This document shows, in pieces, positions 5,187 through 54,458 of a stretch of DNA of 64,000 bases. Numbering within the stretch: the first letter of the stretch is position 1; each line of letters begins with the position of its first letter. A program made the position numbers and the translations under genes. The notes under the pieces were generated by a model. It ran no database searches and was not told the DNA's origin. It saw only the letters and a list, made by a program, of their open reading frames with translations. The stretch covers positions 51,001 through 115,000 of the forward strand of contig JBBHKE010001715.1 of the NCBI GenBank assembly GCA_037447655.1, written 5' to 3'. This stretch comes from Zygnema cylindricum. Lineage: Eukaryota > Streptophyta > Zygnematophyceae > Zygnematales > Zygnemataceae.

Positions 5187-5753
5187 TCATTTTATTTTAT
5201 TAATCTCATTGATGGATTTGCTGATCAATAGCAAATCATCTACATACATTGCCACATAAATCACTCCATCATCACCTTGCATTACATAGACTGAGTGATC
5301 TGAGTTGATCCTGGTAAAGCCAAGGTTGGTTAAAAACGCATCTAATTTGAGGTTCCATTGTCTCGGAGCTTGTTTCAGACCATATAGGGACTTTAACAGT
5401 TTAGAGACCATATTTTCTTTCCCTTTTTCTGCATACATCTCTAACTGTTTCATATAAATTACTTCCTCCAAATCACCATGCAAGAAAGCCGTCTTAAAAT
5501 CCATCTGATGCAATTCCATATCCTCTATTGCAGCAAGAGATAGCAAAACTCTAACTGTAGGAAAGCGAACCACAAGAGAGAAGGTCTCTTCATAATCAAT
5601 TCCCTCATTTTGGCTAAATCCCTTAGCCATCAATCTAGTTTTATATCTCTTAGTTGTCATATCTGGATTTATTTTTAATTTGAAGACCCACTTACAACCG
5701 ATAGCTTTCCGCTTCGGTGGGAGCTCTAGAAGTTCCCAAGTTTGGGCTTCCAT
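5187..5753 (-). pseudogene. pol: Copia A reverse transcriptase core
   Basis: RVT_2-type reverse transcriptase. One open segment of 188 codons carries [59 protein letters not shown] and the catalytic YVDDLLLIS near the end, so both metal-binding Asp of the YxDD box are present. It is separated by stops from the connection domain (4821-5063) and from the linker to integrase (5754-6400). Antisense reading frames on the plus strand are shadows. Confidence 0.9.
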
Positions 5754-6400
5754 AAATGATTTTATCTTTTCATTTGCAACTGAGATCCAATGATTTTTTT
5801 TACGAACAAAAAAAGCTTCATGAATAGTAAGAGTCTCCCTTGTGCTTGCAGAAAAAACACTCTCAACTCGGTCGCCTCGAAGGCGGCTGCTTTGCCTTCT
5901 TCCCTTGGAAAATCTGACGCGCGAACTGTTGGTTCCCTAGATTGCCGTACAGGGCTTGTATTGGGAGGAGCATCAACAAAAAAAGGGCGTGTATTGGGAG
6001 GAGCATCAACAAAAAGAGGGCGTGTATTGGGAGAAGCATCAACAGAAAGAGCAGCTCTAGAATGAGTATTAGACAGCCTAGAGGCTTTTGGGGAGAGGTA
6101 GAAGAAGTAGAATAGGTTGGAGTAAAAGGTACCTGCTCAAGAATGATATACTTTTGTATTTTCTCATTCCTTTCAGATACATTCATGCTTAAAACGTCAA
6201 CAGATTGACTTTCATCTATAATCGGAATATTTTTGGCTTTTACAAGGCATCCTCTCTGAGAATTATACACTCTATAACCTGAAGATTCATCATCATAGCC
6301 TAAAAAAACACTAGGTACAGATTTTGGACCTAGCTTCCAATTGGGAAGATTATCCAAGATAAAACATTTGCTACCCAAAAACTCTAAAATGACCGACATT
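5754..6400 (-). pseudogene. pol: Copia A integrase-RT linker with 11-codon repeats
   Basis: C-terminal integrase extension and low-complexity linker. It shows SKCFILDNLPNWKLGPKSVPSVFLGYDDESSGYRVYN (in pieces) near 6380-6260, then a variable region with a 33-bp repeat, then SDFPREEGKAA. The repeat reads as hydrophobic in one frame (LFLLMLLPIHA) and hydrophilic in another (DAPPNTRPLFV). The second fits the linker better because it joins the SDFP motif shared with other copia elements in this window. Confidence 0.7.
5953..6053 (-). repeat. 33-bp minisatellite, three copies
   Basis: Three head-to-tail copies of a 33-bp unit containing GTATTGGGAGGAGCATCAAC, with few differences. It sits in the integrase-RT linker of copia A and keeps the reading frame (11 codons per unit). 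Confidence 0.85.
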
Positions 6401-7587
6401 TGACTTTTCGCCTGTCCACACTTCATAAGGTGTCTTACCCTTAACAACTCCGGTTTCCACTCTATTTCTGATGTAGGAAGCACAATGAAAAGCTTCCCCC
6501 CAAAACTTTGGATCCATACTTTTATCTGCCATCAAAGATCGAGCACATTTAGTCAAAGTCCGATTAAGTCTCTCAGCAACACCATTTTGTTTCGGTGTGT
6601 ACGGAGTAGTAAATTCACGAGAGATGCCATTTTGTTTCAAAAAATCAGCAAAGGCATGAGATACATACTCTCCACCATTCTCCGGCCGCAAAGCAAGCAT
6701 AGATTTGCCGTGAAGTTTCTCCGCCCAGATTTTGTAGTCTTTAAAGTGAGTGAAGACTTCTCTCTTCTCCTTCATGAAATATACGCGACTGTACCGGGAG
6801 TAATTGTCTATAAAGGTGAGAAAGAAGCGGTTGCCACCAAGAGAAGAAACTTTAGAATGGTCGAAAATATCTGAGGGGATAATACCAAGAACATTTGTAT
6901 CTCGGTGATCAGAAACTTGTGATAGGGGAAGCTTGTGAAGCTTTCCATGAGCACAACCATCACACACATGAGACTCTTGTTGACCAAGCTTGACTCCCTC
7001 TATCATATCATGTTTTATCATCTTAGTAAGTCTCTCATGATGTACATGACGAAACCTTTTATGCCACAAAATATTATCACATAGGACACTAGAGTACGCA
7101 AAATCTATTTTATTAGCCAGGTCCATGCGGTACAAAACATTTCGGCCTCTAGTTTCTACTAGAGCTAATCTTCCATTCTTGCTCACTATTTTCTTGCCAT
7201 TTTTATAGAGAACCTCAAAGCCTTTGCTTTCAGCTACAGACGTAGAAAACATATTTTTCTTGAACTTTGGAACATACAAGACATCATACAAAGTTCTCTT
7301 AACAACCTTTCCATCTATATCACAATCTAGATCTATGTTTCCTTTGGCATTTGATTCAACAGCATAGCCACAAGCATAAAAGATCTGACATAAAGGAAAA
7401 GAAGACATCTCTTTAAACCAAGACTTATTCCAGCACATGTGTGAATAGCTGCACGATCCATTATCCATTCGAGGTCCTTTTCTCCTTCCATCATGTCGAG
7501 TTTGGCAAGAGCAAAGAACTCTTTGTCATCAGTTTTTGGAAAACTGATCTCATCAGGTGTCGTTTCCTCGGTCGTTTTCTTCTTCAA
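6371..7587 (-). pseudogene. pol: Copia A protease-integrase
   Basis: A 365-codon frame (7468-6371) holds the pre-integrase and integrase: HHCC zinc region (LWHKRFRHVHHERL...CDGCAHGK), FIDNYSRYSRV, then PENGGEY, where the second catalytic Asp has become Glu, and the final Glu in GVAERLNRTLT. The protease site is split by a frameshift near 7455: one frame reads WIMDR, the next MDNGS, and neither retains DSG. The first integrase Asp lies in a region reading PSDIFDHSK. It is enzymatically inactive but clearly the same family as the left copy. Confidence 0.88.
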
Positions 7588-8392
7588 CTCTATATCCTCT
7601 GCTGAAAATGCAACAATTTTATTCGGAGGTTTTTGGGAAAAAGGAGGTCTGCGGTGTCACCATCCTTTTCGAAAGGTACAAAAGACAAGCTCTTTTATAT
7701 ACAAAGGACAAGCTCTAAAGGAGTGACCATCAGTATAGCAATAAACACATTTCTCAAACTGAGGATTAAACTGATTCCCTTGATATCTACTTTCCCTCTT
7801 AAAGTGAGCCGTAAATGCTACAGGTGGTTTTCTAAATCCTAAAGCTGTGTGATTAGCCTCTTCTACCAAGATAAACTCTATAGCTGTTTGCAAATTCCGA
7901 AGAGGTTTAGACAATTTTTTCATTTCATCTGAGGCTCCTTTATATTCATTAGGAAGCCCTTTTAGGAGAATCATGGCCTGATGATAAGGGGAGAAAGTCC
8001 CTCTAGAACATGTATTTTCTGACAGTAACATTCGAAAACGATTAGTGTATTCTATCATGCTACCACCTGTGTACTTATCCTCATAGATCTCACCAGCAGT
8101 TATAATCTCATGCTGGTCACTAGCTTTAACATAAGAAGATTTCAATGCATCCCACAATTTTGATGCCTTTGTAACATTAATATATGGCATATGCAATTCA
8201 TTTAATATCATAAGCTTTACTAAATGCAAAGCCTGGTCATCTTTTTGATCAAAGGTGGCATAAGATTCAGCCAGTGATCCATTTAACACATCAATAAGTT
8301 TCATTTGCTTGAAGTAAGACTTAACCAAATCTACCCAATACAGATATTAACGTCAATCAAAGACTGGAATTCGTGAAGGCGAGCCCGTGACC
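7588..8392 (-). pseudogene. gag: Copia A gag
   Basis: A 223-codon frame (8328-7657) starts MVKSYFKQMKLIDVLNG and carries capsid motifs LWDALKSSY and YTGGSMIEYTNRFRMLL and one complete CCHC knuckle CVYCYTDGHSFRAC near 7735. The true start probably lay in the LTR (reading MPA...SEQQ before the primer-binding site at about 8379-8392), but stops near 8350 and 8420 break the link. The gag is better preserved than in the left copy. Confidence 0.88.
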
Positions 8393-8902: not shown

Positions 8903-9680
8903 TGTCATGCCGCATTGTGTCGGGACATGTATTTTGTTTATTTGTAAGAATATTACTGGTTGAGGCTACACTAATTCTGGTTGTGTTAAAATCATGCTTG
9001 AATACAGGATTTATTGTGTACTTACTTCGAAGAGACGCAAGGAATTCAGTGATACATATTTTCGTGCGCGATTTGAAGGTGCACGATTCGAATGGCGTAC
9101 GCGGATATCCTTTGGAGGTCGTACGATACAAGATGAACGAACCTCCATGATATTACATTTGTACTTTTATTTTCGCCTGTACTTTCACTTAAGTTGGAAT
9201 TTCACGATGTACGAATCGCGTGTACGCGGAGCGTTTGTTGGCGCTTCGATTTTTGGGTCACATTGAAGTCGTGAACCCATGTAGGTTCACGCATACATGT
9301 AGTTAGGAAGGGTTTTAATCCGCGGATTGTGAATTTTGTAACGTAGGCATATGGTCCTGGTCGCTTATTGGCCAGAACCCAAACTTGTCACAAATTGTAC
9401 AGTGAAATACTCTCACATGATTGGCTAGTTAGCAAATGTCAGAAAGTAGTACTTTGGTTATTTCGTTAGTACTTAGACGATTGCGTTAGGTTTGTATTCT
9501 CATAGTTTGAGAGTACAGGAATTGGTCGAATAGGATTTAGATTTTTCTGTCTTTTTCCCATGTCTTTTTCCTTAGTCAAATTATCAGTTTTTTCCCTACA
9601 AGGCTTTTTCTACCTTAGTTTTTTTCAGCGCTTAGCTTTTCTCTTTTCTTATTATACTTTCATTGTAAGACCTACAAGTT
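8903..9680 (+). repeat. Gypsy 1 terminal repeat segment A1
   Basis: Nearly the same as 14563-15364 (A2), differing by substitutions and small indels around 9045 and 9210. After 9680 it runs on into the leader, whereas A2 runs into B2. By position it corresponds to the transcribed start (R-U5-like) of the element. Confidence 0.85.
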
Positions 9681-11348: not shown

Positions 11349-11596
11349 AATCTGGCCGTGAGTGGCCTTCCGTTTTTCGTGATTGCTTGGAGTGGATTTT
11401 ACAGCTTAGATCTGGCCGTTGGTGGCCTTGGATAGTTGTCTCTCTGTTTGTGTTGCTGTAGATCTGCACCTGTGGGTGTTTAGATAGCAATTTTTTTGCC
11501 TTTATAGATCCGGCCCTCCGGCCTTGCCCACTTGTTTACAGGGTAGAACGTTTCGGTAACACGGCTTTTTGGTAGATCTGGTCATCGTGGCCTTGA
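11349..11596 (+). promoter_or_regulatory. Array of five small hairpins in gypsy leader
   Basis: Five copies of a motif AGATCTG + 4-bp stem + 3-6 nt loop + stem + TTG-like tail, near 11350, 11408, 11460, 11506 and 11573. Stems read GGCC/GGCC (three copies), CACC/GGTG and GGTC/GGCC. Gypsy fragment 2 has three more (about 15902, 15945 and 16010) with ACCC/GGGT, GGTC/GGTC (wobble) and GACC/GGTC. The changes preserve pairing. It lies upstream of gag, where packaging or translation signals usually are. Confidence 0.55.
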
Positions 11597-11819
11597 TAGT
11601 GTCTTATTGGTTTGATTGTTGTGTGTGGCTTGGTTTCTCACTTGTTGCATTTTGTATAAATCGTGTTCATTATCTCGTCGTTGTTTCCCTCTTCGTTTTA
11701 TGCCCACCGATTAGAACAATTTTAATTTCAGTTCCGGGTCTACTCGTAGTGGTGTAGCTTTCCGCCCATCACCAGTAGACCAAATCGATCTAGCAAGTAT
11801 ATCTAATTTTCCTATAACT

Positions 11820-13017
11820 TTGGTTCTGGTATTGAGAACATCCTCTGTCCGTTCCGGACTCACGTCGTTCTTTTCTTTGTCCTCCGTCTCCTCTACGCTA
11901 TCTGTAGAGGAAACCAAAGACGAGAGCCTCGAGGGATTCGACTCAGGTTCCCTCTCCTTTTGGTCTTCTCCTGGTCTAATTTTTGTCCCACCTCCATACA
12001 CACCGGTCAGTGACATGGCTTCCTCTTCGGAGGGCCCCATGAGCAAAATGCAATTCTGCTTTTCAGGGATGAAGGATACAATGTCTTTATCTCATTTCCG
12101 CATGTTGTATAATACCGAAATGCGCGATTTGGCATTTCGTTATCAAGATCGATTTGATCTTCGTGTAGCATTCTCTCTCCTTGGTCGGTACCTTAGAGGT
12201 TCCGCTCTCACCCTATATTCCCGCAAGTATAATAGTATACTCGCGATGACAGAATTTTCCCCTCCTTTCGCTGGCACACCAGAGGTCATAGGACAAGTGG
12301 ATATCCTGTTTCAGGTCGCTTTTCTCGAGGTCCTAGATGCCAAAAGGTAATGTCCTACTTCCCGCTGTCCCGGAAATTCCTCGGCAATATGCTGTGGCTG
12401 CACGTGCTGCTGTCCCAGCACAATTAGGGATGACGATTCCGCTGCGAGATCCCCTTTCGATTATGTTTGATCTCCTAGAAGGGGAGTATCGAATGCAAAA
12501 TCCATATCAAGTGAAGGAACTGATGAACTTCGAACGTAAACCGGGTGAAACCGCCCCCGTTCTACGTGCCCGTATGGAGACGTTACGAGAAGCCTTACCG
12601 GACTTAATGTCCGATGCGGAAGCTGTCCAAAAATTTGTGGGACAGTTTCCTGATCACTCAAAACGATTTATCCAAAGTCATCTTACGCAGACATACGGCT
12701 TGAAATTTACCTTTGACAAGGCCGCCCAATATACGGTTGAATATGAGATGCAGTCGTGTTGGTGGGAAGCTCATGATCGATCGGAAGTTGCTTTCCCACT
12801 TCCCCCACCAAGCAACCCATGGCCCAACAATAGGCATCCGAAAGTGCCTGCCATGGGAGCTCCACCGTTTAACCCTGGAAACAGATTATGTTTTCGTTGC
12901 GGGGAAACAGGGCATGAGGCTCGTATGTGTCCAGATAAGACGGCCACATGCACTCACTGTCAGCAGATGGGACATTATGCCCATCGATGCAATATTAAAA
13001 ATCCAGAGTTCTCATAT
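11820..13017 (+). pseudogene. gag: Gypsy 1 gag with two zinc knuckles
   Basis: Gag of a Ty3/gypsy element. The first open part (11820-12350) probably initiates at the ATG near 12015 (MASSSEGPMSKM). A frameshift near 12340 moves the frame to the second part (12337-13017). That part has a capsid-like segment (FERKPGETAPVLRARMETL, about residues 66-85) and two CCHC knuckles, CFRCGETGHEARMC (about 12889-12930) and CTHCQQMGHYAHRC (about 12949-12990). It ends at a TAG (13018-13020) that is in the same frame as the protease region, so gag and pol may have been one frame separated by a stop. It is the only gag seen for this family in the window. Confidence 0.85.
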
Positions 13018-13020
13018 TAG

Positions 13021-13935
13021 AATCAAATCAAGAATGGGGGTATTCCCGCCCGTTCCGCCAAGCCGGTCGCTCCGCCTAAGGAGACCGAGAAAGAATCTCC
13101 TCCTCCCAGAATTTCCCGTAGAGAGAGAGAAAAGTTAGAGCTGCAAGCTACTATGGCGGCTATGATGAAGGAACAGTTCGCAGCCTTCATGGCGGAAATG
13201 AAGCCGGAGTTTACACGAATGGCCCGAACGGTCGTTCATATGCCAACGTTGGCCGGTCGAACCCTTCGGGATTCTACCGTCCAACAACGAGCAGCCACGT
13301 TTGACCAAGGCTCGACAGATCATAATCGAGTTGGGAAAGTTACAAATTCTCGAATTCCACTATCTTTTGAGAAAGAAACTCTCTCCCTTCTTCCGGAAAC
13401 GGCTTCGGCTATTGTAGCGGAAGCACTTACAATCTTGGATAGTACAATCCAAGATGCTCATCGCGTCAAGGAATGGTTGAGCATCATATCTTCTATGATC
13501 GAGGACGTGCCTAAGGTCTCTCCTACTTTGGGTGAGGTAACTGCAGCCGCTACTTTACGCGCGTTACAGTTGAATCGCAATCTGTCAGCAGTCCAGCCAA
13601 TTTCGGCGGACGAATGTCGTATATTGGATCCCCACATCAGTTTTCTTGATAACAACCGACACTCATTCACAATCAATGGTGTCGCACCTTCCCTCCCTCT
13701 CGTGGACACCGGAGCAAAACCCGTGATCCTAGGATCCGGATTTGCGTTGAAGCTTGGCCTCACGGCAGACAAGCTGTAACCCACAACCACACGGTTACTG
13801 ACTTCAGCTGGTACCACGGAGCCGGTCCTTGGAATCACCAAGGACCCCCTCGTGTTTCGGTTTCAAACAGAAACCGAAACTGAATTTTCTGAAATTTCTT
13901 CACGTGTATTTCGGGTTGGTGGCGGTGTAGATATG
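13021..13935 (+). pseudogene. pol: Gypsy 1 linker and aspartic protease
   Basis: Continues the gag frame after the TAG: a basic-acidic linker (about 13060-13140), an alpha-helical region, then a retropepsin-like site LVDTGAKPVILGSGF with intact DTG at about 13705. A stop at 13777-13779 and a frame change near 13850 interrupt it; the following block (GGGVDMHDQTFSYRP near 13920) is shared with copies 2 and 3. Of the three protease copies in this window only this one keeps DTG; the others read DNG and NTG. Confidence 0.8.
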
Positions 13936-14349
13936 CATGACCAGACATTCTCTTACAGACCCAATCACTTTCCTGAGCGGAAGATTTGCCTTCCACTTAT
14001 TTCGGCATGGAAGCCCTTACCTACCATGGCTCATTCAGCCACAACACTTCCTGCTTATATTGGTATCGACACATTAGATACTGACATCTCTCCATGTATC
14101 TCTTCATGTATCTCTCCATGTATCTCTCCATGTATTCCCGTGATCAACAAGAACACTTCTAATGGGACTTTGAGTTCTCAGGGTGCAGATTACATGCCTA
14201 TTAGGGAGCATGCCAAGCTTGGTGCTTCGCGTTATTTGCAGGATTTTTCACTGGATTTGGATTCCACGAGGATACTCACTTCTGAGGAGACTCTCGATGC
14301 GCGTCTTCGCGGTCTTCCGATTTTGTTTGCCAGCTCCACCGCAGGCTAA
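13936..14349 (+). pseudogene. Gypsy 1 post-protease to post-integrase fusion
   Basis: Reads LPTMAHSATTLPA (start of the segment preceding the methyltransferase) and then, at about 14060, jumps to TLDTDIS and SQGADYMPIREHAK, which match the region after integrase in gypsy element 3 (about 23605-23720). It contains a 12-bp tandem repeat (four copies of a TCTCCATGTATC-like unit, about 14089-14137, coding SPCIS-like units). It ends TAG/TAA near 14349 just before the polypurine tract. The deletion removed methyltransferase, RT, RNase H, integrase and the PHD finger. Confidence 0.75.
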
Positions 14350-14364
14350 GGAGCAGGGGGGGGA
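14350..14364 (+). promoter_or_regulatory. Gypsy 1 polypurine tract
   Basis: GGAGCA followed by eight G, directly after the last coding remnant and a few bases before repeat B1. The same arrangement (GGAGCTC plus G8) occurs in gypsy element 3 at 23972-23986. Confidence 0.75.
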
Positions 14365-14369
14365 ATAAA

Positions 14370-14562
14370 TGGATCTCTCTCTCAGCTTCCCACTCACCTT
14401 TTCACCTGTTATCTCATTTTTACATTTTCATATTCATTTTAGCTTTGTATTATTATTCATTTTGCTTCGGGATGTGCTTTGCTGTTGTCTCTTCCACGTT
14501 TTCTACTCGCCAGCTGGTTAGGTTGCATGTTTCTTGGTTTGATTAAACACATGCACGATAGC
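14370..14562 (+). repeat. Gypsy 1 repeat segment B1
   Basis: Starts TGGATCTCTC and ends ATGCACGATAGC. Repeated almost exactly at 15365-15555 (B2). Right after the polypurine tract, so by position it is the beginning of U3. Confidence 0.85.
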
Positions 14563-15364
14563 TGTCATGCCGCATTGTGTCGGGACATGTATTTTGTTTA
14601 TTTGTAAGAATATTACGGGTTGAGGCTACACTAATTCTGGTTGTGTTAAAATCATGCTTGAATACAGGATTTATTGTGTACTTACTTCGAAGAGACATTG
14701 GGAATTCTGCGGGTGACACAGAGATACATATTTTCGTGCTCGATTTGAAGGTGCACGATTCGAATGGCGTACGCGGATATCGTTTGGAGGTCGTACGATA
14801 CAAGATGAACGAACCTCCATGATATTACATTTGTACTTTTTTTTTCGCCTGTACTTTCACTTAAGTTGGAATTTCGCGATGTACGAATCGGATGTACGAA
14901 TCGCGTGTACGCGGAGCGTTTGTTGGCGCTTCGATTTTTGGTTCACATTGAAGTCGTGAACCCATGTAGGTTCACGCATACATCTAGTTAGGAAGGGTTT
15001 TAATCCGCGGATTGTGAATTTTGTAACGTAGGCATATGGTCCTAGTCGCTTATTGGCCAGAACCCAAACTTGTCACAAATTGTACAGTGAAATACTCTCA
15101 CATGATTGGCTAGTTAGCAAATGTCAGAAAGTAGTACTTTGGTTGTTTCGTTAGTACTTAGACGATTGCGTTAGGTTTGTACTCTCATAGTTTGAGAGTA
15201 CAAGAATTGGTCGAAAAGGATTTAGATTTTTCTGTCTTTTTCCCTTGTCTTTTTCCTTAGTCAAATTGTCAATTTTTTCCCTACAAGGCTTTTTCTGCCT
15301 TAGTTTTTTTCAGCGCTTAGCTTTTCTCTTTTCTTATTATACTTTCATTGTAAGACCTACAAGT
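14563..15364 (+). repeat. Gypsy 1 repeat segment A2
   Basis: Copy of A1 starting TGTCATGCCGC and ending CCTACAAGT. It is followed directly by B2 rather than by leader sequence. Relative to gypsy element 3, the last several hundred bases of the A segment are missing here. Confidence 0.85.
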
Positions 15365-15555
15365 TGGATCTCTCTCTCGGCTTCCCACTCACCTTTTCAC
15401 CTGTTATCTCATTTTTACATTTTCATATTCATTTTAGCTTTGTATTATTATTTATTTTGCTTCGGGATGTGCTTTGCTGTTGTCTATTCCACGTTTTCTA
15501 CTCGCCAGCTGGTTAGGTTGCATGTTTCTTGGTTTGATTAAACACATGCACGACA
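15365..15555 (+). repeat. Gypsy 1 repeat segment B2 (3' end of element)
   Basis: Second copy of the B segment, ending GCACGACA. The 3' flank resumes copia A LTR sequence after the ACAA duplication. Confidence 0.85.
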
Positions 15556-15887: not shown

Positions 15888-17200
15888 TGTTATTGTAAAT
15901 CTGCACCCAAGGGTTCTTGGATAGCAATTTTCCTGTTTTTATAGATTTGGTCCTTTGGTCTTGCCAACTGTTTGAAGGGTAAAGGTTTTGGTAAACCGAC
16001 TTCTTGCTAGATATGACCATCGGGTCTTTATATTGACTGAGTGTGTTGACTAGACGAGTGGATTGGTCTGACACGTGTTACATCTCGGTTAGGTCGTGCG
16101 AAACAGTTCAGTATCGTAGTCAGGGTTTTCTCCTTGGTTTATGCCCACAGACTAGGACAACCTTTCTTATTTATCCAGGTCCGCCTGAGGTGGTACACTG
16201 TATTGTCCTTCGCAGTAAAATCCTTCATATTTTCCTGAATCGTTGACCACATCCGATCCAATTGCAGATCGCATATCGCTGTCAGTGTGGTTTGGTCTCA
16301 CATCTATGTAATCATTGTCATCGGTTTCATCTAGGTCACACCTATAGGGGACCGAAGAAGACTTTTCGGAGGAAACCTTTCCAACTCCTCACACTCGTTT
16401 CCTCTGAGCGGTTCAACCAGTTACTACGGAAGAGCGTCGTAATCTCGATCCCCATATCAGTTTTTTTGATAACTCTCGAGGATCATTCGCGGTGAATGGT
16501 GTACACCCCACTTTTCCTCTCATGGACAACGGGGCCAAACCCGTGATCCTCGGATCCAGATTTGCACTCAAGCTTGGTCTGACAGCAGACAAGCTTCAAG
16601 CGACCGCTTCCCGCCTTCTTTCTTCGGCTAGGACCACGGAGCTGGTCCTCGGAATCACAAAGGACCCGCTTATCTTTCGGATTCAGACAGGAACCGAAAA
16701 TGAGTCCGTTGAAATTGCCGTCAGAGCATTGGTCACCAAATGTGACGACTATGAGTGTTTGACGGGTCAAGACGTTATATTCTGAATTGGCGGTGGTGTG
16801 GACATGCACGACCAAACATTTTTTTACCGACCGACACACTTTCAGGAGCGCAAAATCAGCCTCTCTCTCATTTTAGCTCGCCGACCTTTACCCACTATGG
16901 CTCACTCGGCTACGACTCTTCTCGCATTTTTGGGGAACTTCGTTGGGGTGGAAATTTTCCAGTCTCTTTTGGCCGAAGAAATTATACCGGATAGTTTTCC
17001 TTTACCCGAGCTCTTTGCGGAACCGGGTTTTCTTATCAATTCTCACACATTTGACAATGTTTATAAGTCCACATTATCTATTCCATTAACGACTATCCCT
17101 CCTATACCTACAGTTGCAACCGATCCTTCGGGTTTCCTTCCTATCAATTGGAAGCTCGTACAGATGAGTCCTCATACATACAGGGTCGTTATTTTGGAGC
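15888..17200 (+). pseudogene. pol: Gypsy fragment 2: leader, protease, pre-methyltransferase segment
   Basis: Leader similar to gypsy 1 positions 11450-11760 (15888-16240, with three hairpin motifs), then an internal deletion of gag, then the protease region from about 16410. Its active-site triplet reads DNG (LMDNGAKPVIL, near 16525). The downstream block (GGGVDMHDQTF, FLINSHTFDN, TVATDPSGFLPI) is about the same as 19240-19640 of gypsy element 3, and the fragment stops at RVVIL, exactly where element 3 continues into the methyltransferase motif DLFAGIG. Here the arginine codon CGA near 16880 is intact, while element 3 has TGA. Confidence 0.85.
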
Positions 17201-17465
17201 AATAGGAGTGAGGGGTGTCTCCTTCCCTTTCCCCTTTTCGGACACACTGCTGTCCCCATCATCTGCCTCCTTCGCCGAGGCAGCCGTTGTTGTAGGAAAC
17301 CTTACTCCCCCAAATCCTGGTGGAGATCCCGAAGGTGGACGTTTCACTTGTCCACTGACGATACCCAAGTATCGTTTTTCACACAAAGCTCCCATCATCA
17401 TGGCTTCCCAATAGATGAACCCAGATCCATTGAAGGTGGACACCCTAGAGGGTGGGCCCATAACC
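17201..17465 (-). pseudogene. gag: Copia B fragment, gag N-terminus
   Basis: The minus strand reads FQVMGPPSRVSTFNGSGF then a low-complexity hydrophilic tail ending near 17204, where it abuts gypsy fragment 2. It is homologous to the N-terminus of copia I gag (59877-59640). The first codons MEDTEF lie in the adjoining LTR. The rest of the element is missing. Confidence 0.8.
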
Positions 17466-18502
17466 TGAAATTCTGTGTCCTCCATTGGACCACAAAATAC
17501 AGGAAGCCTCTAGATAGTATTTAACTAGCCCACTTTAAGCCACAACCACTGCTGCCCAAGAAGGCAAACTGAGAATTTGACTGCACCTCTGTGTAGCGTG
17601 GACTCCCTTGAGTCCGTAGCAAAAAGAATCACTGAAAACGGCCAACCAGCGGATAAGTTATGAGGCAGTAAAAATGCCAATTTGTACAAACTCTCAAAGG
17701 GAGAGGTGACTACCTACCAAAATTTTTTAAGTCCTTATTCTCTCTAATAACTCCTATCTACTGAAGTACGGACCAATCAGATTACTGTATCGTACACAAA
17801 AGTACTACTGGCGATGTACCTTTTGTACGGCCTATGTACGACAAGGCTATTAAGTGGACGCATGTCCACTTTTCACTCGTCCGTACGTTCCTCGGAATTC
17901 CTATGACCGAATGTCATCTCTCTACGTGGCTCCAGGTCATGCCACGTCACAAAACACCAAAATGACCATTCCAGGATTTCGGCGATGATGTGCGCCGTTG
18001 GATTTTACGCGAAACGTAATCTTAGCCGTAATAAATACTTGCGCGACATTTGTTCCGATGTCGAAATAAAATGCGTGGTATCCGTTTTGAATTAGCGTCG
18101 TACGACGTACTTTATAAAACTGAATCTATGTACGTCGTATACAGTTCTAGTTAAATGGATTTAATTCCTCCTAACCAAATATATATCTATTACATACCAT
18201 AGCACTTAGCATTGGTCCTAGTCTTTTAGGATAAGGCTGACCGCTACCGGTCAAATTGACGAACCGTAGGTACCGGGATCAAATCTCTGGTTCGTCAAGT
18301 ATATTTTTAGTAACCTACTAAAAATAGTTGTCTGTTGAACTAAGGCAGCCATGGATCAACCTCTCTCTCTTACCTTCAGTGACTACAACAAGTATGAAGC
18401 TAGAGAGCGGAGGTGGAGGCAGGCTGTCCGTCCTTTTTCCTTTTCCTTTTATAAAAACATATTTAAACCTAAAAATACTTTAGAAATCTATAAATTTCAA
18501 TA
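17466..18502 (-). repeat. Copia B-type 5' LTR
   Basis: Starts TGAAATTCTG beside the PBS GTGGGCCCATAACC (plus-strand view, 17452-17465) and ends TTTCAATA. It is homologous to the LTRs of copia I. It contains the tRNA-like cassette at about 18210-18310 and the conserved CT-rich/AGTGACT block near 18350-18415. Gypsy element 3 starts immediately to the right. Confidence 0.85.
18210..18312 (+). promoter_or_regulatory. tRNA-like pol III cassette in LTR
   Basis: A-box-like TAGTCTTTTAGGATAAGG, an anticodon-like hairpin TGACC..GGTCA, a 10-bp outer hairpin TTGACGAACC/GGTTCGTCAA, a T-arm-like GGGATCAAATCT, then TTTTT. Antisense to the LTR. Homologous cassettes occur in the other B-type LTRs. Confidence 0.5.
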
Positions 18503-18510
18503 TTGTTCAC

Positions 18511-19335
18511 ATGTCGTCGTTGGCCAGACGATCCCTTCGAGATTTGACTGTCGAACAACGGGCGGCCACATTTGAAAAGGGCACAGCGGACCATAACCGA
18601 GTGGGCAAATTACAAAATTCTCGTGTTCCACTCTCATTTGCAAAAGAGCCCTTGGCTTCCCTACCGGAAACCGCTACTACCATCGCGGCAGAGGCACTGA
18701 CCATATTAGATAGCACTATTCATGAGGCTCATCAGGTGAAGGAGCGATTAAGTATTCTTTCAACAATGTTGGAGGATGTACCCAAAGCCCTTCCCTTCGT
18801 TGATGAGGTCGCGGCGGTAGCCGCTTTGAGGGCACTGAGGTTAAACCGCAGTCTCTCAGATGTTCAACCGGTTACTACAAAAGAGCGTCATAATCTTGAT
18901 CCCCACATCAGTTTATTTGATAACTCTTGGGGATCATTCCCAGTAAACGGTGTTCACCCCACTCTTCCTCTCATAAACACCGGCGCCAAACCTGTGATCA
19001 TTGGATCCGGATTTGCGCTCAAGCTTGGTTTGACAGCAGACAAGCTTCAGGCGACCACTACCCGCCTTCTTACTTCGGTTGGGACCACGGAGCCGGTCCT
19101 CGGAATCACAAAGGACCAGCTCATCTTTCGGTTTGAGACAGGAACCGAAAATGAGTCTGTTGAAATTGCTGTCAGAGCATTAGTCACTAAATGTGACGAC
19201 TATGAGTGTTTGGTGGGTCAAGACGTTATATTCCGAATCGGCGGTGGTGTGGACATGCACGACCAAACATTTTCTTACCGACCGACACACTTTTCGGAAA
19301 GCAAAATTTGCCTCCTTCTCATTTCAGCCCGCTGA
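18511..19335 (+). pseudogene. pol: Gypsy 3 linker and aspartic protease
   Basis: A 274-codon frame. Residues 1-130 match the helical linker of gypsy 1. The protease site reads LINTGAKPVIIGSGF with the catalytic Asp replaced by Asn (codon 156, about 18976). It continues through the GGGVDMHDQTFSYRP block and stops at TGA 19333-19335. The paralogue at about 16880 has CGA at this point, so the stop is a C-to-T change in a CpG. The next frame, the methyltransferase segment, is in the same phase. Confidence 0.85.
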
Positions 19336-19338
19336 CCT

Positions 19339-20550
19339 TTGCCCACTATGGCTCACTCGGCTATGGCTCTTCCCGCATTTTTGAGGAACTCCGTTGGGGA
19401 GGAAATTTTCCACTCTCTTTCGGTAGAAGAAATTATACCGGATAGTTCTCCCTTACCCGAGCTCTTTGCGGAACCAGGTTTTTTAATTAATTCTCACACC
19501 TTTGACAATATTTATAAGTCCACATTATCTATTCCATTAACGACTATCCCTCCTATACCGACGGTTGCAACCGATCCTTCGGGTTTCCTTCCAATCAGTT
19601 GGAAGCCCGTACAGCTGAGTCCTCATACGGACGGGGTCGTTATTCTAGACCTATTCGCTGGGATCGGAACTTCACTATTGTCATGTTTACGGAGTGGTCT
19701 CCTCATCCGTCACTACTATGCAATAGAAATTTATGCATTTGCTAGGAAAGCACAATTGCACCACTGTAATCTCCTGCATTCTCAGTATCCACAGTTGTTT
19801 CCAAAGTCAGCCTTTCTACACATGCACACAACTTTTCCACAAGACATTAACATCCTTAGTAATCATCACCTACGGGATGTCGAACCGATAGACCTTGTTT
19901 TCGGGGGGTGGGAGTGTCAAGGCATGTCTTGGGCCGGCAGAGATCTTGGTTTGGCGGATCCCCGTACTAAATTGTTTTTTGAGCTTTTGAGGATCCTTCA
20001 TTTTTTTCAAACCATGTCCAAGCCTGTCGGATACATTTTAGAGAACGTTGCAGCCTATAATGATCCTCGGCCAACAGTTCTGGCTGACTATAAGCGCATA
20101 GAACACCTCATCGGACCCCCGCTAATTGTTGATGCCGCTCGGCATGGGTCCCTTGCACATCGGGTTCGCTCCAAATGGAAAAACCTAATCGATGTTGGTC
20201 GTCTTTGTGAGCCTAATTTGTTTGTAAGACCTCCCACTACAGACATTACGAACGCTTTGCTTCCCTTTCACCGAGTCCAATCATGTGTCCAAACTGACTA
20301 CCCTCCGAATTACAACATTAATGTACGTGGCCAACCCTCGGATCCTTTCACTGAGTGTCTTCGCTTAATTCCATGCATACCTCTCATATCAGGCATGCTC
20401 CGAAATAATGGCACTGGAGGTTAGAGACCTATGGCACACAGGAGCATCTCATGCGATTTTATTCCAGCACTACTGCGGCCACCGACTTCTGGATTGACAG
20501 CGTTGCACTTTGTTGGGTAGTATCATGGATTCTCAATCTTTATCATTTGT
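19339..20550 (+). pseudogene. C5 cytosine DNA methyltransferase domain inside gypsy polyprotein
   Basis: Predicted to transfer a methyl group from S-adenosylmethionine to cytosine C5. The 361-codon frame shows, in canonical order, motif I ILDLFAGIGTSLL (residues about 102-114), motif II-like YYAIE (Glu130), motif IV DLVFGGWECQGMSWAG with the catalytic Cys193 (about 19915), motif VI YILENV (Glu235) and a motif VIII-like LAHRVRSKWKNL (272-283). Motif X (VALCWVVSWIL, about 20502-20534) lies in another frame after the TAG at 20422-20424, so a frameshift separates it. The Pro of the usual PCQ is Glu here. The N-terminal 100 residues are a linker shared with fragment 2. It lies between protease and RT. 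The copy is broken but all core motifs are recognisable. Retroelement-borne C5 methyltransferases are known from charophyte algae and dinoflagellates. Confidence 0.88.
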
Positions 20551-21048
20551 CTTAGGTTTGGGCCTTGCGGTGGTCGCTACGCGGAATCACCCCGATACAG
20601 CCGATTGAGGGGGGAAATCTGCCCATTGATTTGTTTCCTCCTATTATCCTATCTGAGAAAATCCATTTCGGTTTTTTTTTTTCCTTCTCTCACACCTGCG
20701 GTTAAGTACATCTCCATCTATGATTTCCTCAACTCCAGTCATATGTCTTGGGAAATCCTGGCCTGTACAGCCGCTCAATCCAGAATTTCATCGTTTCCTA
20801 GCTCGGCACCGAAATGGACAGCTTCATTTTCGACACATAGCTAGCACCACTGGGTGAACTGTTTGCAGCAGACTCTAGTAAAATACAAGTTAGGCCACTC
20901 ACTCATCGCCGATGAGCAAATTGCATTTGCTCAGGCCATGGAAGCTTTCACTATCAAGAGTCTTGAGACGCCCAAGTGGAAGTTCAGTTCCAGTCTCACA
21001 AAGGCGGAATAGGCACTATTAAGTGACACAGTCACTTGTCAGATAAAT
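20551..21048 (+). other. Spacer between methyltransferase and RT, decayed pol
   Basis: No recognisable domain. In the RT frame, short stretches such as HSLIADEQIAFAQAMEAF and SLETPKWKFSSSLTKAE (about 20890-21010) look like the connection that precedes gypsy RT, broken by stops at 20842-20844 and 21010-21012. A T-rich tract at 20671-20680 may be a frameshift site. Confidence 0.5.
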
Positions 21049-21860
21049 GTGTTTGCTTTCTCCATGAATGACCTTGGACGTCATTCTACTTACAAAATGT
21101 CAATCGACCTTGAAGACGATCGACCTATCTTTAAGCAAAAACACCGTCTCTCTGAAATGGAATGGGAGATGGACAAAAGATGCGCAGAAGTGGAAGAAGC
21201 CGATCTAATCTATCGGTCAGATTCCACCTTTGCCGCCTGGAAAGTCATGCCAAGGAAGAAAGATTTCGACGGAAATTTCATTGAGCGAAGAATGTGTGGG
21301 GACTACCAAGAGCTTAATGCTCAGACCGTTCAAGACCGCCACCCTATTCCTCTAGCAAAGGAAATATTTGACCATGTAGGTGGTGTAAAATTCTTAAGCA
21401 TTCTTGATTTGCGTCAAGGGTTTAACCAGATTGAAATCGAGGAAAGAGATCGGCATAAAAATGATTTTGGGGTAGTGATGGTCGGTGGGAATGGGTAGTC
21501 ATGACGTTCGGTCTTAAGAACGCACCCGCCGTGTTTCAAAAAGTCATGGATTCGGTGCTAGGTGGATGTAAATTTTCCCGGTGCTACATCGATGACTTGA
21601 TAATCGCTTCCGCCACGGTTGAGGAGCACACCCGCCATATTGAGTGGGTTCTCACCGAGTTAAAGAAAGTCGGGCTGAAGTGTCACCCTACCAAGTGTAC
21701 TTTCGGAGCGGAGGGAGTGCCCTATCTCGGCCATTTTATTTCAGCTGAGGGTATCTCTCCCTTGGAAGCTAAGGTAGAGGCTATCACTAAACTGCCGGCC
21801 CCTACAAATCTCACTAGTCTGAGGGCTTTTCTCGGATTAGCCAATTATTACCGTTAATTT
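21049..21860 (+). pseudogene. pol: Gypsy 3 reverse transcriptase
   Basis: RVT_1 of the Ty3/gypsy type. First part: YKMSIDLEDDRPIFKQKHRLS, FAAWKVMPRKKD, DYQELNAQTVQDRHPIPL, FLSILDLRQGFNQIEI. After a frameshift at about 21455: MTFGLKNAPAVFQKVMD, the catalytic CYIDDLIIAS (YIDD, about 21588), LKCHPTKCTFG and YLGHFIS. It ends at TAA after LANYYR. Both Asp of the YxDD box are present, so damage is limited to frame and stops. Confidence 0.92.
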
Positions 21861-22557
21861 GTACTGAAAATTAGTACGATTGCTTTTCCCCTTAATGACC
21901 TTCTCAAAAAAGAGGTGCATTTCGTTTGGGGACCCGCCCAAGTAGAAGCGTTTCAAAAACTGAAAACCGCCCTTTCCAGCGCTCCCATTCTACGACCTCC
22001 TAACCACAAGCTTTCCTTTTGCCAACAAACAGATTTTGTGAAGCCAGGCATTGCGGCTATTTTAACGGAAAGAGAGTTGAACGGAGAGGAATACGTAGTG
22101 GCATACGCCAGCCGGTGCAAAATCTAATTACAGTAGTTACGAGGGTGACTGTCTCACCGCGGTTTGGGGTATTGTTCATTTTCGACATTATCTTTACGGC
22201 AAGCCATTCACCCTCCTAACTGACCATCAACCCCTTCATTGGTTGATGACCAACGATAAGCTTTCAGGGAAGCTTGCCCGATGGGCTGTAATTTTACAAG
22301 AGTGCGACGTTGAGATCATCCATTGGCCCGGTTTGTTAAGCTTGAACGCCGACGGGATTTCTCGGAATCCACTACCCCGGATCACCGATAACAGTGTCCG
22401 GCAAGATTTCGACGAGGACAAGGAACCGGCCATGTCGGCTGGTTCCTATATCACTTACTGTCTCTCTTTTATTCCTCACCCTCTGCCGGCCACAGATCCG
22501 TGGCAAAATAGCCTATTAATCCTCTTCCTCTCCTCTCAAACTTTTCGGCCCCGGTAG
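21861..22557 (+). pseudogene. pol: Gypsy 3 RNase H
   Basis: The RT connection and RNase H: FVWGPAQVEAFQKLKTAL, then QTDFVKPGIAAIL (first acidic residue), YEGDCLTAVWGIVHFRHYLYG (Glu position, after a frameshift near 22125), LLTDHQPLHWL (third acidic residue) and LSLNADGISRNPLPR. The catalytic acids are visible. The reading frame is split in two and ends near 22557. Confidence 0.88.
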
Positions 22558-22630: not shown

Positions 22631-23488
22631 TTGCTGGCAGACAACAGTCATCGGCATGTCCTCCGACCAACCGAGCGCTTGTCCTTGATTGAGCAGATAC
22701 ATACCGAGCTTGGCCATTATGGGACCAAGCATACTTTGAGCCTTGTACAAGCACGCTATTGGTGGTCCGGAATGCAAGCGGATGTGGCGGCCATTCTCCA
22801 CAAATGTGCCACATGCGACCGGCTACGCACCTCTTTCTCTAATCGGCAGGTGTCTCTACAACCATTGCCTATCAGAGGAATGTTGTATCGATGGTCTGTG
22901 GATCTTGCCGGACCGTTTACCTTATCTCGAAAGGGGAAACAATACATCATGATAATGATTGAAAATTTTAGCAAGTGGGTAAAGGTGGTCGCTCTTCCCC
23001 ACAAGACCGCTAAAATGACCATCGATGCATTTAAAGAGCATGTTCTCATGCGTTATAGAGCTCCTGCGGAGATTCTCACGGACTAGGGTACGGAGTTCCA
23101 CGGGGAATTTTAAGAAATGTTGGATGAAGCTATAATTGATCATCGCCGGACGAGTCGTGATCACCCACAAGCCGATGGCTTGGCGGAACGAGCAGTCCAA
23201 ACTTTCAAGGGGGCTCTCGGAAATCATTGTTTGGAGAAACACATGTATGTCTGGGACGAATCCTTGGGCTATATCACCATGGGATACGGGATGTCCGTGC
23301 ATGCTGGTTTGGCTAATTTCAGTCCGTACTATATTCTCTTCGGTCGAGCACCCTTGCTCGGTCGGAATAATCAGAAAGCAACAAGTTTACCTTTGCCTCT
23401 AATGTCTGATACCATATTCTTCGAAGAACTAACTCGTCGTGCTTTGCTTTTCGCTCGGGAGATGCCCATGGCTTTTAATAATTTGTAG
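22631..23488 (+). pseudogene. pol: Gypsy 3 DDE integrase
   Basis: Integrase inserts the cDNA. It shows the HHCC zinc domain (LGHYGTKHTLSLVQARYWW ... CATC, about 22700-22820), the rve core with first Asp in SVDLAGPF, second Asp in EILTD just before a TAG (23084-23086) that replaces the usual Gln, and the catalytic Glu in PQADGLAERAVQTFK. Further stops are TAA 23111 and TAG 23486. All three stops can be explained by C-to-T changes of CAG, CAA and CAG. This DDE enzyme shows the family is not a tyrosine-recombinase element despite its split repeats. Confidence 0.92.
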
Positions 23489-23960
23489 ATTGCTCCACAT
23501 CGGGATACTTTGTGCTTTGCCACAACGCGAAGTGGCAGTTACAAGCATCAACAGAAATCTTATCGGGTCGGATATTACGTGTACCTCCGACGACAAACTT
23601 TTGACACTTTGGACACGGATGTTTCACCACACATTCTTCGTGTGGTGGAAATGGATGTTAATGGGATGTTGGGTTTGCAGGGTGCAGATACAAGGATAAT
23701 TTGAGAGCATTTGAAGAACTGTGCACCTTATTACATACCGGATTTGTCAAAGGATATGGATCCGATGAGGATGCCAATCATAGAGGCGACAGAATGTACC
23801 ATTTGCAGGCGAGCAGACGGCGAGACTTCCATGCTCTTGTGCGACCATTGTAACCAAGGGTTCCACATGGAGTGCTTAGTTCCTCCATTGATAGTTATGC
23901 CAGCTGGCCACTAGTTTAGCCATGGCTGTTGTGCGCTGCCAGCGGTTTTGACTAGCTCCT
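23489..23960 (+). pseudogene. pol: Gypsy 3 post-integrase region with PHD finger
   Basis: After integrase comes an SH3-like stretch (YRVGYYVYLRRQTFDTLDTD, LRVVEMDVNGMLGLQG) and, from 23789, a PHD zinc finger: ECTICRRADGETSMLLCDHC, then GFHMEC. The first six zinc ligands of the C4HC3 pattern are present (four Cys, His, Cys). The expected W before the last pair is a TAG stop (23912-23914) and the seventh ligand reads Ser. PHD fingers read histone H3 tails, so in an active copy it could guide integration or methylation to marked chromatin. It takes the place of the chromodomain found in many plant gypsy elements. Confidence 0.85.
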
Positions 23961-23971
23961 CCGCAAGCTAA

Positions 23972-23986
23972 GGAGCTCGGGGGGGG
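23972..23986 (+). promoter_or_regulatory. Gypsy 3 polypurine tract
   Basis: GGAGCTC followed by eight G, a few bases before repeat B1. It corresponds to the tract of gypsy 1 at 14350. Confidence 0.75.
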
Positions 23987-23992
23987 AATTAT

Positions 23993-24177
23993 GAGGGTCA
24001 CTTCACGCTAGGGGAGTATGCTTCCCTTTTATTCCTTTGGTCATCTTAACCTTTATTCTTTTGCATGTTGTATATACATTTTTCCCGTCTCATTCATTTT
24101 CGTTTATATATATGTTTGGAGCATGACTTTGCTGGTTAGGATGCACGTTCGGTCTTTCTAATCTCTCATGCACAACA
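23993..24177 (+). repeat. Gypsy 3 repeat segment B1
   Basis: From GAGGGTCACTTC to GCACAACA. Repeated at 32193-32376 (B2) with about 10 percent differences. Followed after one base by TGTTATG, the start of A2. Confidence 0.85.
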
Positions 24178-24178
24178 C

Positions 24179-24965
24179 TGTTATGTTGCATGGTATCGGA
24201 CACATGCGCGCACAACATTCTACATGCGTGCATGATATCCCGCACGCACGCACAATATTGTGCTCGCGCGCGTGATATTATGCATGCGTGCACAATACGG
24301 TGCACGCACGCGCAATATTCTGCATGTGTGCACAATACGGTGTACGCACGCGCGATATTGTGTCCACGCGCACAATATCGTGACCGCATGCGCGACAGTC
24401 AGCGAGCGGGCATGATTTCATTCACGCGCGCACGGTATTATTCCCACACGCACGATATTTTGGCGTGCGTGTATGATTTTCGAACGACGCACCGCAATTT
24501 ATTATGTTTGACGGTGCGCGATCGCATACCGCCGAACGGAATGTTCATTGGCGCATTTTGTTTCGCTTCGCGCCGCTGCAAGTTTGAGTATACGGAAGTA
24601 TCGCTTGGCACGCAACGCGAGCATCCGAGTAACACGAGTTTCAATGTACCGCTATATTTAAGTCATGTAAATAATGAATTCTACAGTTATGGTTTAAATT
24701 CAGACGGTGATTATGTGGAACGCCGCACAATGCTTCTTTATTGGCTAACATTCTAAGTAGTTTTATACATTTAAATTAGACTAGACATAGGCTAGTTTTT
24801 TTTAGGCCTAGCGTAGCTTCTACTTAGTCTATTTTCAGACTTTTGGACAAGAATTTTCTCTTGGCGGCGGAGCTGTTTTCTTGCTTCCTCCTTGCCACCG
24901 ATTGCCCACCATTTCTTTTTCTTCTTGTTAGCTGGCGATAGATGCTATTTAGCGTAAGATTTTTT
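24179..24965 (+). repeat. Gypsy 3 repeat segment A2, first part
   Basis: Starts TGTTATGTTGC, homologous in position to TGTCATGCCGC of gypsy 1. It contains a 20-bp CpG-rich array and, at about 24652, a TATA-like CTATATTTAAG that could be the promoter. It is interrupted at 24966 by a solo LTR and continues at 31841. Confidence 0.75.
24201..24480 (+). repeat. 20-bp-period CpG-rich tandem array, about 14 units
   Basis: Successive 20-base units each combine a GC alternation (TGCACGCACG-like) with CACAATATTG-like sequence. The period is exactly 20 over at least 12 units, with the last units more divergent. The array is absent from gypsy 1. It is alternating purine-pyrimidine and unusually CpG-dense for this window. 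Confidence 0.85.
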
Positions 24966-31840: not shown

Positions 31841-32192
31841 TTTTTCTCTCCTTATGTTCTGCCTTGTTTTAAATCCTCACAGCTTCGGCCAAGTTTGGAA
31901 AGTTTCCCTCCAAATTTGTCTTTTTGGCGATTGTTGGAATGTAGGCTTGAGGCGTGGCATCTTATATTGGGCTGCCCCGTTCTCCGGACAGCAGGACTGT
32001 TTGTTTAAGTGTATTTGTTTGTGTGGCATTTCGGTTGTCTTGTAAAAGTGCTTCTTTTTACCAAATCCAAATTTCTTGGTTTCGTTGAAAGTGTTTATTT
32101 GCTTCGTTGCTTTCCTATGAGATAACTCTTGTAAAAAATACGTTGAAGACCCAAGAGCATAGTGGCTACCTTGCGGCTGGGTATAAATTATC
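31841..32192 (+). repeat. Gypsy 3 repeat segment A2, second part
   Basis: Continues 24965. Its end (TAACTCTTGTAAAAAATACG ... GTGGCTACC ... GGGTATAAATTATC) is homologous to gypsy 1 leader at about 10190-10255 and, inverted, to 43618-43841. Directly followed by B2. Confidence 0.75.
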
Positions 32193-32376
32193 TGGGTCAC
32201 TTCACTCTAGGGGAGTATTCTTCCCTTTTATTCCTTTGGTCATCTTCACCTTTATTCTTTTGCATGTTGTATATAAAATTTTCCCGTCTCATTCATTTTC
32301 GTTTGTATATATATTTGGAGCATGACTTTGGTGGTTGGGATGCACGTTCGCTCTTTCTAGTCTCTCATGCACGACA
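32193..32376 (+). repeat. Gypsy 3 repeat segment B2 (3' end)
   Basis: Second copy of the B segment (compare 23993-24177), from TGGGTCACTTC to GCACGACA. Reproduces the B1-A2-B2 order of gypsy 1. Confidence 0.85.
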
Positions 32377-54127: not shown

Positions 54128-54458
54128 CTCCCCTAAATCTTTAGACTCTCTCAGCCACTGAGTCCACATTCCTCTCTAAAAAAATTCAATTTAGGTGCAG
54201 GTAAAGACTTAGTCATCATATCAGCTATCATTATCTCATCTCGTAGATAACTAAGTTTCAAAATCCTATTCATCACCTTATTTATCACAAAATGCAACTT
54301 GATATCAATGTGTTTGATTTTGGAGTGATAACTTTGGTTAGATGCAATCGCAATAGCTGCCTGGTTATCACACAAAACTATTTGAGATCGTGATTGCATG
54401 AAATGAAGATCTTGAAGGAGAGACTCACCCTCAGTAACTGCTTGACTAGTGAGCTTGC
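54128..54458 (-). pseudogene. pol: Copia F2 RNase H end
   Basis: Reads LCDNQAAIAIASNQSYHSK, KHIDIKLHFVINKVMNRIL and ADMMTKSLPAPKLNF, ending EECGLSG. Interrupted at 54458 by copia I; the upstream part is at 60903. Confidence 0.88.

What the first reader, a model, noticed from the sequence alone, without database searches (positions are those of the whole stretch)
19339..20550. Cytosine DNA methyltransferase captured inside a Ty3/gypsy polyprotein, between protease and RT
Seen: C5-methyltransferase motifs I, IV (with catalytic Cys), VI, VIII-like and X in order, in the same frame as the upstream protease and downstream RT. Known: retrotransposon-borne cytosine methyltransferases have been described in charophyte algae and dinoflagellates. 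Inference: the element methylates its own or host DNA, perhaps to pass as silent chromatin or to protect its cDNA. The placement before RT, not at the C-terminus, is notable.
Basis: partly seen in the sequence, partly recalled or inferred. Interest (0 to 1): 0.9.

Follow-up and report, generated by a model that had tools for sequence, protein, structure and literature searches.

The report
DNA methyltransferase inside a plant-type retrotransposon
A decayed copy of a plant-type jumping gene carries a DNA-methylating enzyme between its protease and its reverse transcriptase; related elements, some from green algae, point to one old and lasting capture, a further case of something first described in 2018.

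Summary
Window 19639-20421 encodes a C5 cytosine methyltransferase (DNMT) domain: Pfam 7.3e-11; 248 bits to a profile built without the window, next window stretch 5.6 bits. It lies between protease and reverse transcriptase (RT) of a broken Ty3/gypsy copy. Corrections: stops separate the blocks and motif X is out of frame, so this copy cannot make a complete enzyme.

Of 56 database RT proteins that could show it, 16 carry DNMT sequence before RT in the same frame; 8 of these are named Closterium. On an RT tree all 19 DNMT-positive rows fall in one 100/100 clade without any of 22 clear negatives. DNMT and RT divergence run parallel (r 0.85). This suggests one old capture, then co-inheritance. 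Klebsormidium and Calypogeia RTs in that clade could not be judged.

The kind is known: KnitGypsy-Dnmt3 (PMC5890265). Not mentioned in the text I read: a PHD finger after integrase and Glu instead of Pro before the catalytic Cys in 10 of 15 sequences. Most likely role, inferred: methylating the element's own cDNA before integration. The source genome could not be searched.

The parts
18511..19335 (+). Element C: spacer and aspartic protease (TGAKPVIIGSGFALKLG), ends at an in-frame stop 19336-19338
   Evidence: ORF; Asp_protease_2 8.8e-4, below Pfam's cut-off; 37-39% identical to PR of relatives P0001, P0002, P0007, P0009
19339..19638 (+). PR-DNMT linker, same frame as PR and DNMT
   Evidence: also in copy B (about 16888-17193), within a 792-nt match of 89.0%
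19639..20421 (+). DNMT catalytic domain, motifs I, IV (WECQ), VI, VIII
20424..20605 (+). out-of-frame remnants of DNMT motif X and tail (frame 2 about 20439-20485; frame 1 20498-20605)
   Evidence: frames read, compared by eye with P0004, P0012, P0013; profile match only 2.2 bits
21049..21857 (+). reverse transcriptase in two frames (21049-21495, 21501-21857)
   Evidence: RVT_1 2.6e-4 (below cut-off) and 2.5e-16
21861..22554 (+). RNase H in two frames
   Evidence: RT_RNaseH_2 4.3e-14 and RT_RNaseH 7.3e-18
22631..23485 (+). integrase: H2C2 zinc domain and core, interrupted near 23084-23116
   Evidence: Integrase_H2C2 9.3e-16, rve 1.1e-5 (below cut-off), no Pfam match for 23117-23485, which is 53% identical to P0043's integrase over 123 aa
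23795..23932 (+). PHD finger C-terminal to integrase; a stop inside and one Cys of the last pair lost
   Evidence: PF00628 3.7e-10 over 33 of 47 profile positions; aligned with the PHDs of P0043 and P0044
23970..24177 (+). polypurine tract (to about 23988), then putative 3' LTR (TG at 23992)
   Evidence: sequence; 23987-24177 is 92.7% identical to 32186-32376; LTR assignment inferred
11451..14369 (+). copy A: Gag with two CCHC knuckles (12337-13017), PR (about 13153-13900), then a deletion past DNMT, RT and IN to the 3' tail
   Evidence: zf-CCHC 3e-8, two stretches; 13234-13899 is 71% identical to 18505-19170; 14160-14273 and 14332-14366 match 23659-23772 and 23954-23989
15888..17193 (+). copy B: 5' leader fragment, PR and linker; ends at DNMT motif I
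   Evidence: 16402-17193 is 89.0% identical to 18853-19644; 15888-16160 is 69.8% identical to 11451-11719

Best explanation
Element C is a dead copy of a Ty3/gypsy LTR retrotransposon lineage, probably of streptophytes (green algae and land plants), with the order Gag-PR-DNMT-RT-RNaseH-IN-PHD. An ancestor took up a DNMT3-like cytosine methyltransferase once, in Pol between PR and RT, and the lineage kept it (supported by comparison). Working relatives would make the DNMT as part of Pol, so it is packed with RT in the particle; whether PR frees it is unknown. Most likely it methylates cytosines of the new double-stranded cDNA before or at integration, so that the new copy already bears the host's mark of settled, silent DNA, is less likely to be met as foreign, and is tolerated for longer. 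The PHD finger on integrase would bind a histone H3 tail and steer insertion. The methylation and targeting steps are inferred, not shown.
Against: No activity shown. The published KnitGypsy DNMT gave no detected methylation in yeast (authors: inconclusive). Glu replaces the usual Pro before the catalytic Cys in the window's subclade; effect unknown. The gypsy copies are less CpG-depleted (o/e 0.85-0.94) than the Copia-rich regions (0.53-0.58), so no sign of stronger self-methylation. A DNMT3 origin is not settled: five phage MTases score 73-95 bits against 59 for the DNMT3A piece, and a small tree puts that piece on the phage side. Ten RT relatives of the clade show 101-132 aa before RT without DNMT; I count them as unjudged, but some may truly lack it.
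Confidence: 0.55

Rival explanations
1. The domain is non-catalytic or weakly catalytic and binds DNA or recruits host DNMTs (as animal DNMT3L does, recalled), at least in the WECQ subclade; host enzymes then methylate the element.
For: Glu for Pro in motif IV in 10 of 15; motif VI departs from ENV in 5 of 16 rows that show it (P0011, P0018, P0020, P0040, P0111); no detected yeast activity of the K. nitens enzyme.
Against: Catalytic Cys present in the 15 rows that show motif IV (rows were picked by a pattern that includes the Cys, so this is weak); ENV in 11 of 16; published Ka/Ks under 0.2 for KnitGypsy DNMTs.
Confidence: 0.2
2. The enzyme methylates RNA, such as the element's own RNA or its tRNA primer, rather than DNA.
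For: It sits in Pol next to RT, which handles both; the authors raise RNA methylation for SymbioLINE-Dnmt.
Against: The profile ranks DNMT3 first and the tRNA MTase DNMT2 far below (70 against 17 bits).
Confidence: 0.08
3. The DNMT marks host chromatin at the target, or silences rival elements, rather than the element's own cDNA.
For: PHD finger after integrase in the window and in P0043 and P0044 suggests work on chromatin.
Against: Nothing tests it here; fusion with RT favours cDNA as the nearest substrate (inference).
Confidence: 0.12
4. Chance side-by-side of a host DNMT fragment and a gypsy fragment, or an assembly artefact.
For: The copy is broken and lies among many other repeats.
Against: DNMT sequence before RT in the same frame in 16 database proteins; PR, linker, DNMT block and first RT half in one frame in the window; copy B holds PR and linker too.
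Confidence: 0.02

Closest known systems
KnitGypsy-Dnmt3 of Klebsormidium nitens (de Mendoza et al. 2018, PMC5890265)
   Same: LTR Gypsy element with a Dnmt3-type, unrearranged, intronless DNMT in the Pol ORF; K. nitens RTs P0054 and P0064 fall in the same 100/100 RT clade as the window.
   Different: Its sequences were not at hand and figures and supplements could not be read, so domain order, motif IV and PHD were not compared; the main text holds no 'PHD'. Whether P0054 and P0064 belong to KnitGypsy-Dnmt3 is not known. DIRS-like repeats are reported for it, not resolved here.
SymbioDIRS-Dnmt3 of Symbiodinium (PMC5890265)
   Same: Dnmt3-type DNMT sharing a Pol frame with RT.
   Different: DIRS element with tyrosine recombinase, in dinoflagellates, by the authors an independent acquisition. 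The window element has an rve-type integrase.
Chromoviruses (Ty3/gypsy with integrase chromodomain; recalled)
   Same: A histone-reader type domain at the C-terminus of integrase.
   Different: PHD finger instead of chromodomain; no DNMT in the usual form (recalled).
CR1-like LINEs with a PHD (Kapitonov and Jurka 2003; only the title seen, in a reference list)
   Same: PHD in a retroelement.
   Different: Non-LTR element, so no integrase-borne PHD.

Membership tests
C5 cytosine DNA methyltransferase (PF00145) | Pfam DNA_methylase above its cut-off; motifs I, IV with catalytic Cys, VI, VIII in order | tested here: met
   42.5 bits, cut-off 22; motifs. The usual (recalled) Pro before the Cys is Glu here
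C5 cytosine DNA methyltransferase (PF00145) | Motif X completing the fold | tested here: inconclusive
   Out of frame in this copy; in frame in relatives such as P0004, P0018, P0020, P0036
DNMT3 class | Closer to DNMT3 than to other classes | tested here: inconclusive
   PDB profile and fold rank DNMT3A/B first; phage MTases score as well or better and a small tree does not join the family with the DNMT3A piece
DRM (plant rearranged DNMT3) | Motifs VI-X placed before I-V (recalled) | tested here: not met
   Motif I precedes IV, VI, VIII in the window
Ty3/gypsy LTR retrotransposon | Order PR-RT-RNaseH-IN with H2C2/rve integrase | tested here: met
   (PR, first RT half and rve below Pfam cut-offs in this decayed copy)
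Ty3/gypsy LTR retrotransposon | Paired LTRs and target-site duplication | tested here: inconclusive
   PPT and one putative 3' LTR; the 5' side is taken up by another repeat
DNMT-bearing streptophyte Gypsy (KnitGypsy-Dnmt3 kind) | DNMT inside the Pol reading frame of a gypsy element | tested here: met
   One frame in the window, cut by stops; in one open frame with RT in relatives
DNMT-bearing streptophyte Gypsy (KnitGypsy-Dnmt3 kind) | RT in one clade with K. nitens gypsy RTs | tested here: met
   30-row clade, 100/100; not known whether these K. nitens RTs are KnitGypsy-Dnmt3
DNMT-bearing streptophyte Gypsy (KnitGypsy-Dnmt3 kind) | Purifying selection on DNMT (Ka/Ks) | not testable with these tools
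   One DNMT copy in the window; relatives at hand as protein only; source genome did not complete
DNMT-bearing streptophyte Gypsy (KnitGypsy-Dnmt3 kind) | DIRS-like repeat arrangement reported for K. nitens | tested here: inconclusive
   A 189-nt direct repeat follows the PPT of copy A, its second copy 806 nt further on; not resolved

The most novel reading that the evidence does not exclude
One old streptophyte gypsy lineage carries a writer and a reader of chromatin at once: a cytosine methyltransferase fused ahead of RT, in one subclade with a kept Pro-to-Glu change next to the catalytic Cys, and a PHD finger on integrase. It writes methylation on its own cDNA and inserts it into chromatin chosen by its histone H3 state, a self-silencing, low-harm way of life kept across green algae and possibly liverworts. 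The Glu would retune the enzyme (substrate, context or rate) rather than kill it.
Probability: 0.2. Interest if true: 0.78.

Novelty: new member of a known kind. Interest (0 to 1): 0.5.

Why it matters
Host DNA methylation usually silences transposons, so a transposon lineage that has kept its own methyltransferase for a long time is a direct test of what methylation can do for the transposon. The comparison here adds to a report from one alga a wider lineage with a single inferred capture, another named host genus (Closterium), a testable enzyme variant (WECQ) and a PHD finger on the integrase as a second chromatin-directed part. For this window alone the value is modest: it is a broken copy.

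Tried and rejected

RT tree labels. With 100 aa before RT taken as enough to call an absence, the tree needs 3 changes; with 140, 170 or 200 aa, 1. The ten rows of the clade that turn from 'none' to 'unjudged' show 101-132 aa before RT; the gap between the end of the DNMT match and RT is 64-140 aa in the 14 of 16 positives where the match reaches the DNMT end, so these ten cannot be called either way. Dropped before the counts: P0004 and P0012 (positive, RT match under 170 aa); P0093 and P0101 (negative, long branches). The tree sample is the 120 listed of 1,107 hits.

CpG depletion as a sign of self-methylation: not seen. LTR pair and target-site duplication: not resolved. Literature: searches listed 2, 5 and 5 papers, none by title or abstract start on a PHD of a gypsy integrase; only PMC4120745 was opened, in passages. 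Searches (DNMT3 with Closterium; cytosine methyltransferase with liverwort) listed 0; one search listed 3, of which PMC11540031 was not opened. Searches gave nothing beyond papers named here, except PMC11244446, not opened. The library holds open-licence papers only.

Full report
What is there. The stretch 19339-20550 lies in a Ty3/gypsy copy on the + strand (element C). Its parts, in order: spacer and protease 18511-19335, linker 19339-19638, DNMT 19639-20421, RT 21049-21857 in two frames, RNase H 21861-22554, integrase 22631-23485, a PHD finger 23795-23932, a polypurine tract and a putative LTR start at 23992. Pfam finds DNA_methylase at 7.3e-11. A profile of 13 relatives built without the window gives 247.8 bits; the next best of 1,544 open stretches in the window is 5.6 bits and the best of 500 codon shuffles 1.1 bits. 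So the domain is not chance.

Protease, DNMT motifs I to VIII and the first half of RT share a frame, but stops at 19336-19338 and 20422-20424 separate them. Motif X is not in that frame: remnants that resemble the relatives' motif X and tail stand in frame 2 (about 20439-20485) and frame 1 (20498-20605). This is by eye; the profile gives the latter only 2.2 bits. RT, RNase H, integrase and PHD are broken too. This copy cannot be active as it stands.

Neighbours. Copy A (11451-14369) has Gag with two CCHC knuckles and PR, then a deletion to the element's 3' end. Copy B (15888-17193) has PR and linker, 89.0% identical to C over 792 nt, and ends at DNMT motif I, where an LTR-like repeat (17186-18503) begins. 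Neither tells whether an intact copy has the domain. Many minus-strand Copia fragments lie in the rest of the window.

Relatives. A first protein search gave 1 hit; the pair as a profile gave 13; a search with P0013 (DNMT C-terminus plus RT) gave 1,107 hits, of which the best 120 were listed and examined. Candidate lists were capped at about 8,000. A family profile hits 24 of the 130 proteins held (9 of the 24 were in that profile). Of 120 proteins with an RT match, 56 have at least 100 residues before RT, and 16 of these carry DNMT sequence there, in seven only its C-terminal part (5 of the 16 were in the profile used). P0018, P0020, P0034 and P0036 reach the Pfam cut-offs for DNA_methylase and RVT_1 in one protein; P0040 falls just below for DNA_methylase and P0071 has none. 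PR and DNMT share a frame in P0002 and P0011 by Pfam (P0011's PR below cut-off), and in P0001 and P0007 by eye. Eight of the 16 are named as Closterium strains NIES-53, NIES-54 and NIES-65; no other host name is given for the 16. RT relatives from the liverwort Calypogeia fissa and from Klebsormidium nitens start too close to RT to be judged.

One capture. On an RT tree of 118 rows with 19 positives, the DNMT label needs 3 changes if 100 residues before RT are taken as enough to call an absence, and 1 change from 140 residues up (shuffled mean 14.4, lowest 10, at 140). On a careful tree of 52 rows, the 19 positives and 11 unjudged rows form one clade at 100/100, apart from the 22 clear negatives. 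For 9 elements, DNMT and RT identities correlate (r 0.85; 0 of 5000 permutations as high). In a tree of DNMT domains the 14 rows of the retroelement set form one group at 100/98 against 10 phage or bacterial MTases and a DNMT3A piece; four of the 14 (P0005, P0006, P0008, P0010) have no RT in the same frame. One old capture followed by co-inheritance explains this best. Four labels are inferred, ten rows are unjudged (see Tried and rejected), the sample is the best 120 of 1,107, and spread between hosts is not excluded.

Two features worth a second look. First, among 15 rows that show motif IV, the residue before the Cys is Glu in 10, including the window, and Pro in 5 (two of them near-copies); it is Pro in 11 of 11 outgroups. 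The rows were picked by a pattern that includes the Cys, and P0111's match breaks off before motif IV, so Cys conservation is not proved by this count. The Pro forms whose RT could be placed (P0036, and P0011 through P0072) lie outside the 24-row clade (90/87) that holds the window and the Glu forms with a placed RT, so Glu looks derived and kept. Second, a PHD finger follows integrase in the window (3.7e-10) and in P0043 and P0044 (4.7e-11 and 1e-11), which fall in the two branches of the 10-row clade (96/91) that holds the window. That this type of PHD prefers unmodified H3K4 would be a recalled likeness, not tested.

How it likely works. DNMT is made in Pol and stays with RT in the particle; it can reach the double-stranded cDNA first. 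Methylating it before integration would make the new copy look like settled, silent DNA. Copies B and C differ by CG to TG/CA at 25 of 60 CpG sites, against C/T or G/A differences at 36 of 290 other C/G columns, as expected if copies are methylated, by whichever enzyme. The gypsy copies are not more CpG-poor than the Copia regions, so there is no sign of extra self-methylation. Function remains inferred.

What is known. In de Mendoza et al. 2018 (PMC5890265; parts 1-4 of 7 read, and passages), K. nitens has LTR Gypsy elements with a Dnmt3-type DNMT in Pol, under purifying selection; its yeast test was inconclusive, while SymbioDIRS-Dnmt3 methylated CG. PMC12344493 (section 5, and passages) repeats that some DNMT3 members sit in retrotransposons (it names Copia and DIRS). 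PMC6453930 was seen in passages only. The present element is therefore a new member of a known kind. I found no mention of the PHD or of the Glu variant in what I read, but figures and supplements could not be read.

Limits. No nucleotide data of relatives, hence no Ka/Ks.

Noticed in passing
23795-23932: PHD finger C-terminal to the integrase of element C, decayed at its end; present with complete Pfam coverage in relatives P0043 and P0044.
   Followed up: partly
14370-14558 and 15365-15553: 189-nt direct repeat, 98% identical, 806 nt apart; the first copy starts right after the polypurine tract of gypsy copy A. LTR pair, short non-autonomous element or split repeat: not resolved.
   Followed up: partly
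14563-15365 and 8903-9680: The segment between the two 189-nt repeats recurs at 8903-9680 with 94% identity.
   Followed up: no
17186-18503: LTR-like repeat between gypsy copies B and C, starting where DNMT motif I of copy B begins; relatives at 59646-60903 (79%) and 54458-55494 (81%).
   Followed up: no
24234-24395: Tandem array of GC-rich, partly self-complementary 20/40-mers just after the putative 3' LTR of element C.
   Followed up: no
5187-8328 and 26967-63915, minus strand: Many Copia-like gag-pol fragments on the minus strand; CpG o/e 0.53-0.58 in four such regions against 0.85-0.94 in the gypsy copies.
   Followed up: partly
P0005, P0006, P0008, P0010 (proteins): DNMT relatives (WPCQ or WECQ) in reading frames where no RT was seen; whether they lie in retroelements is not known.
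   Followed up: no
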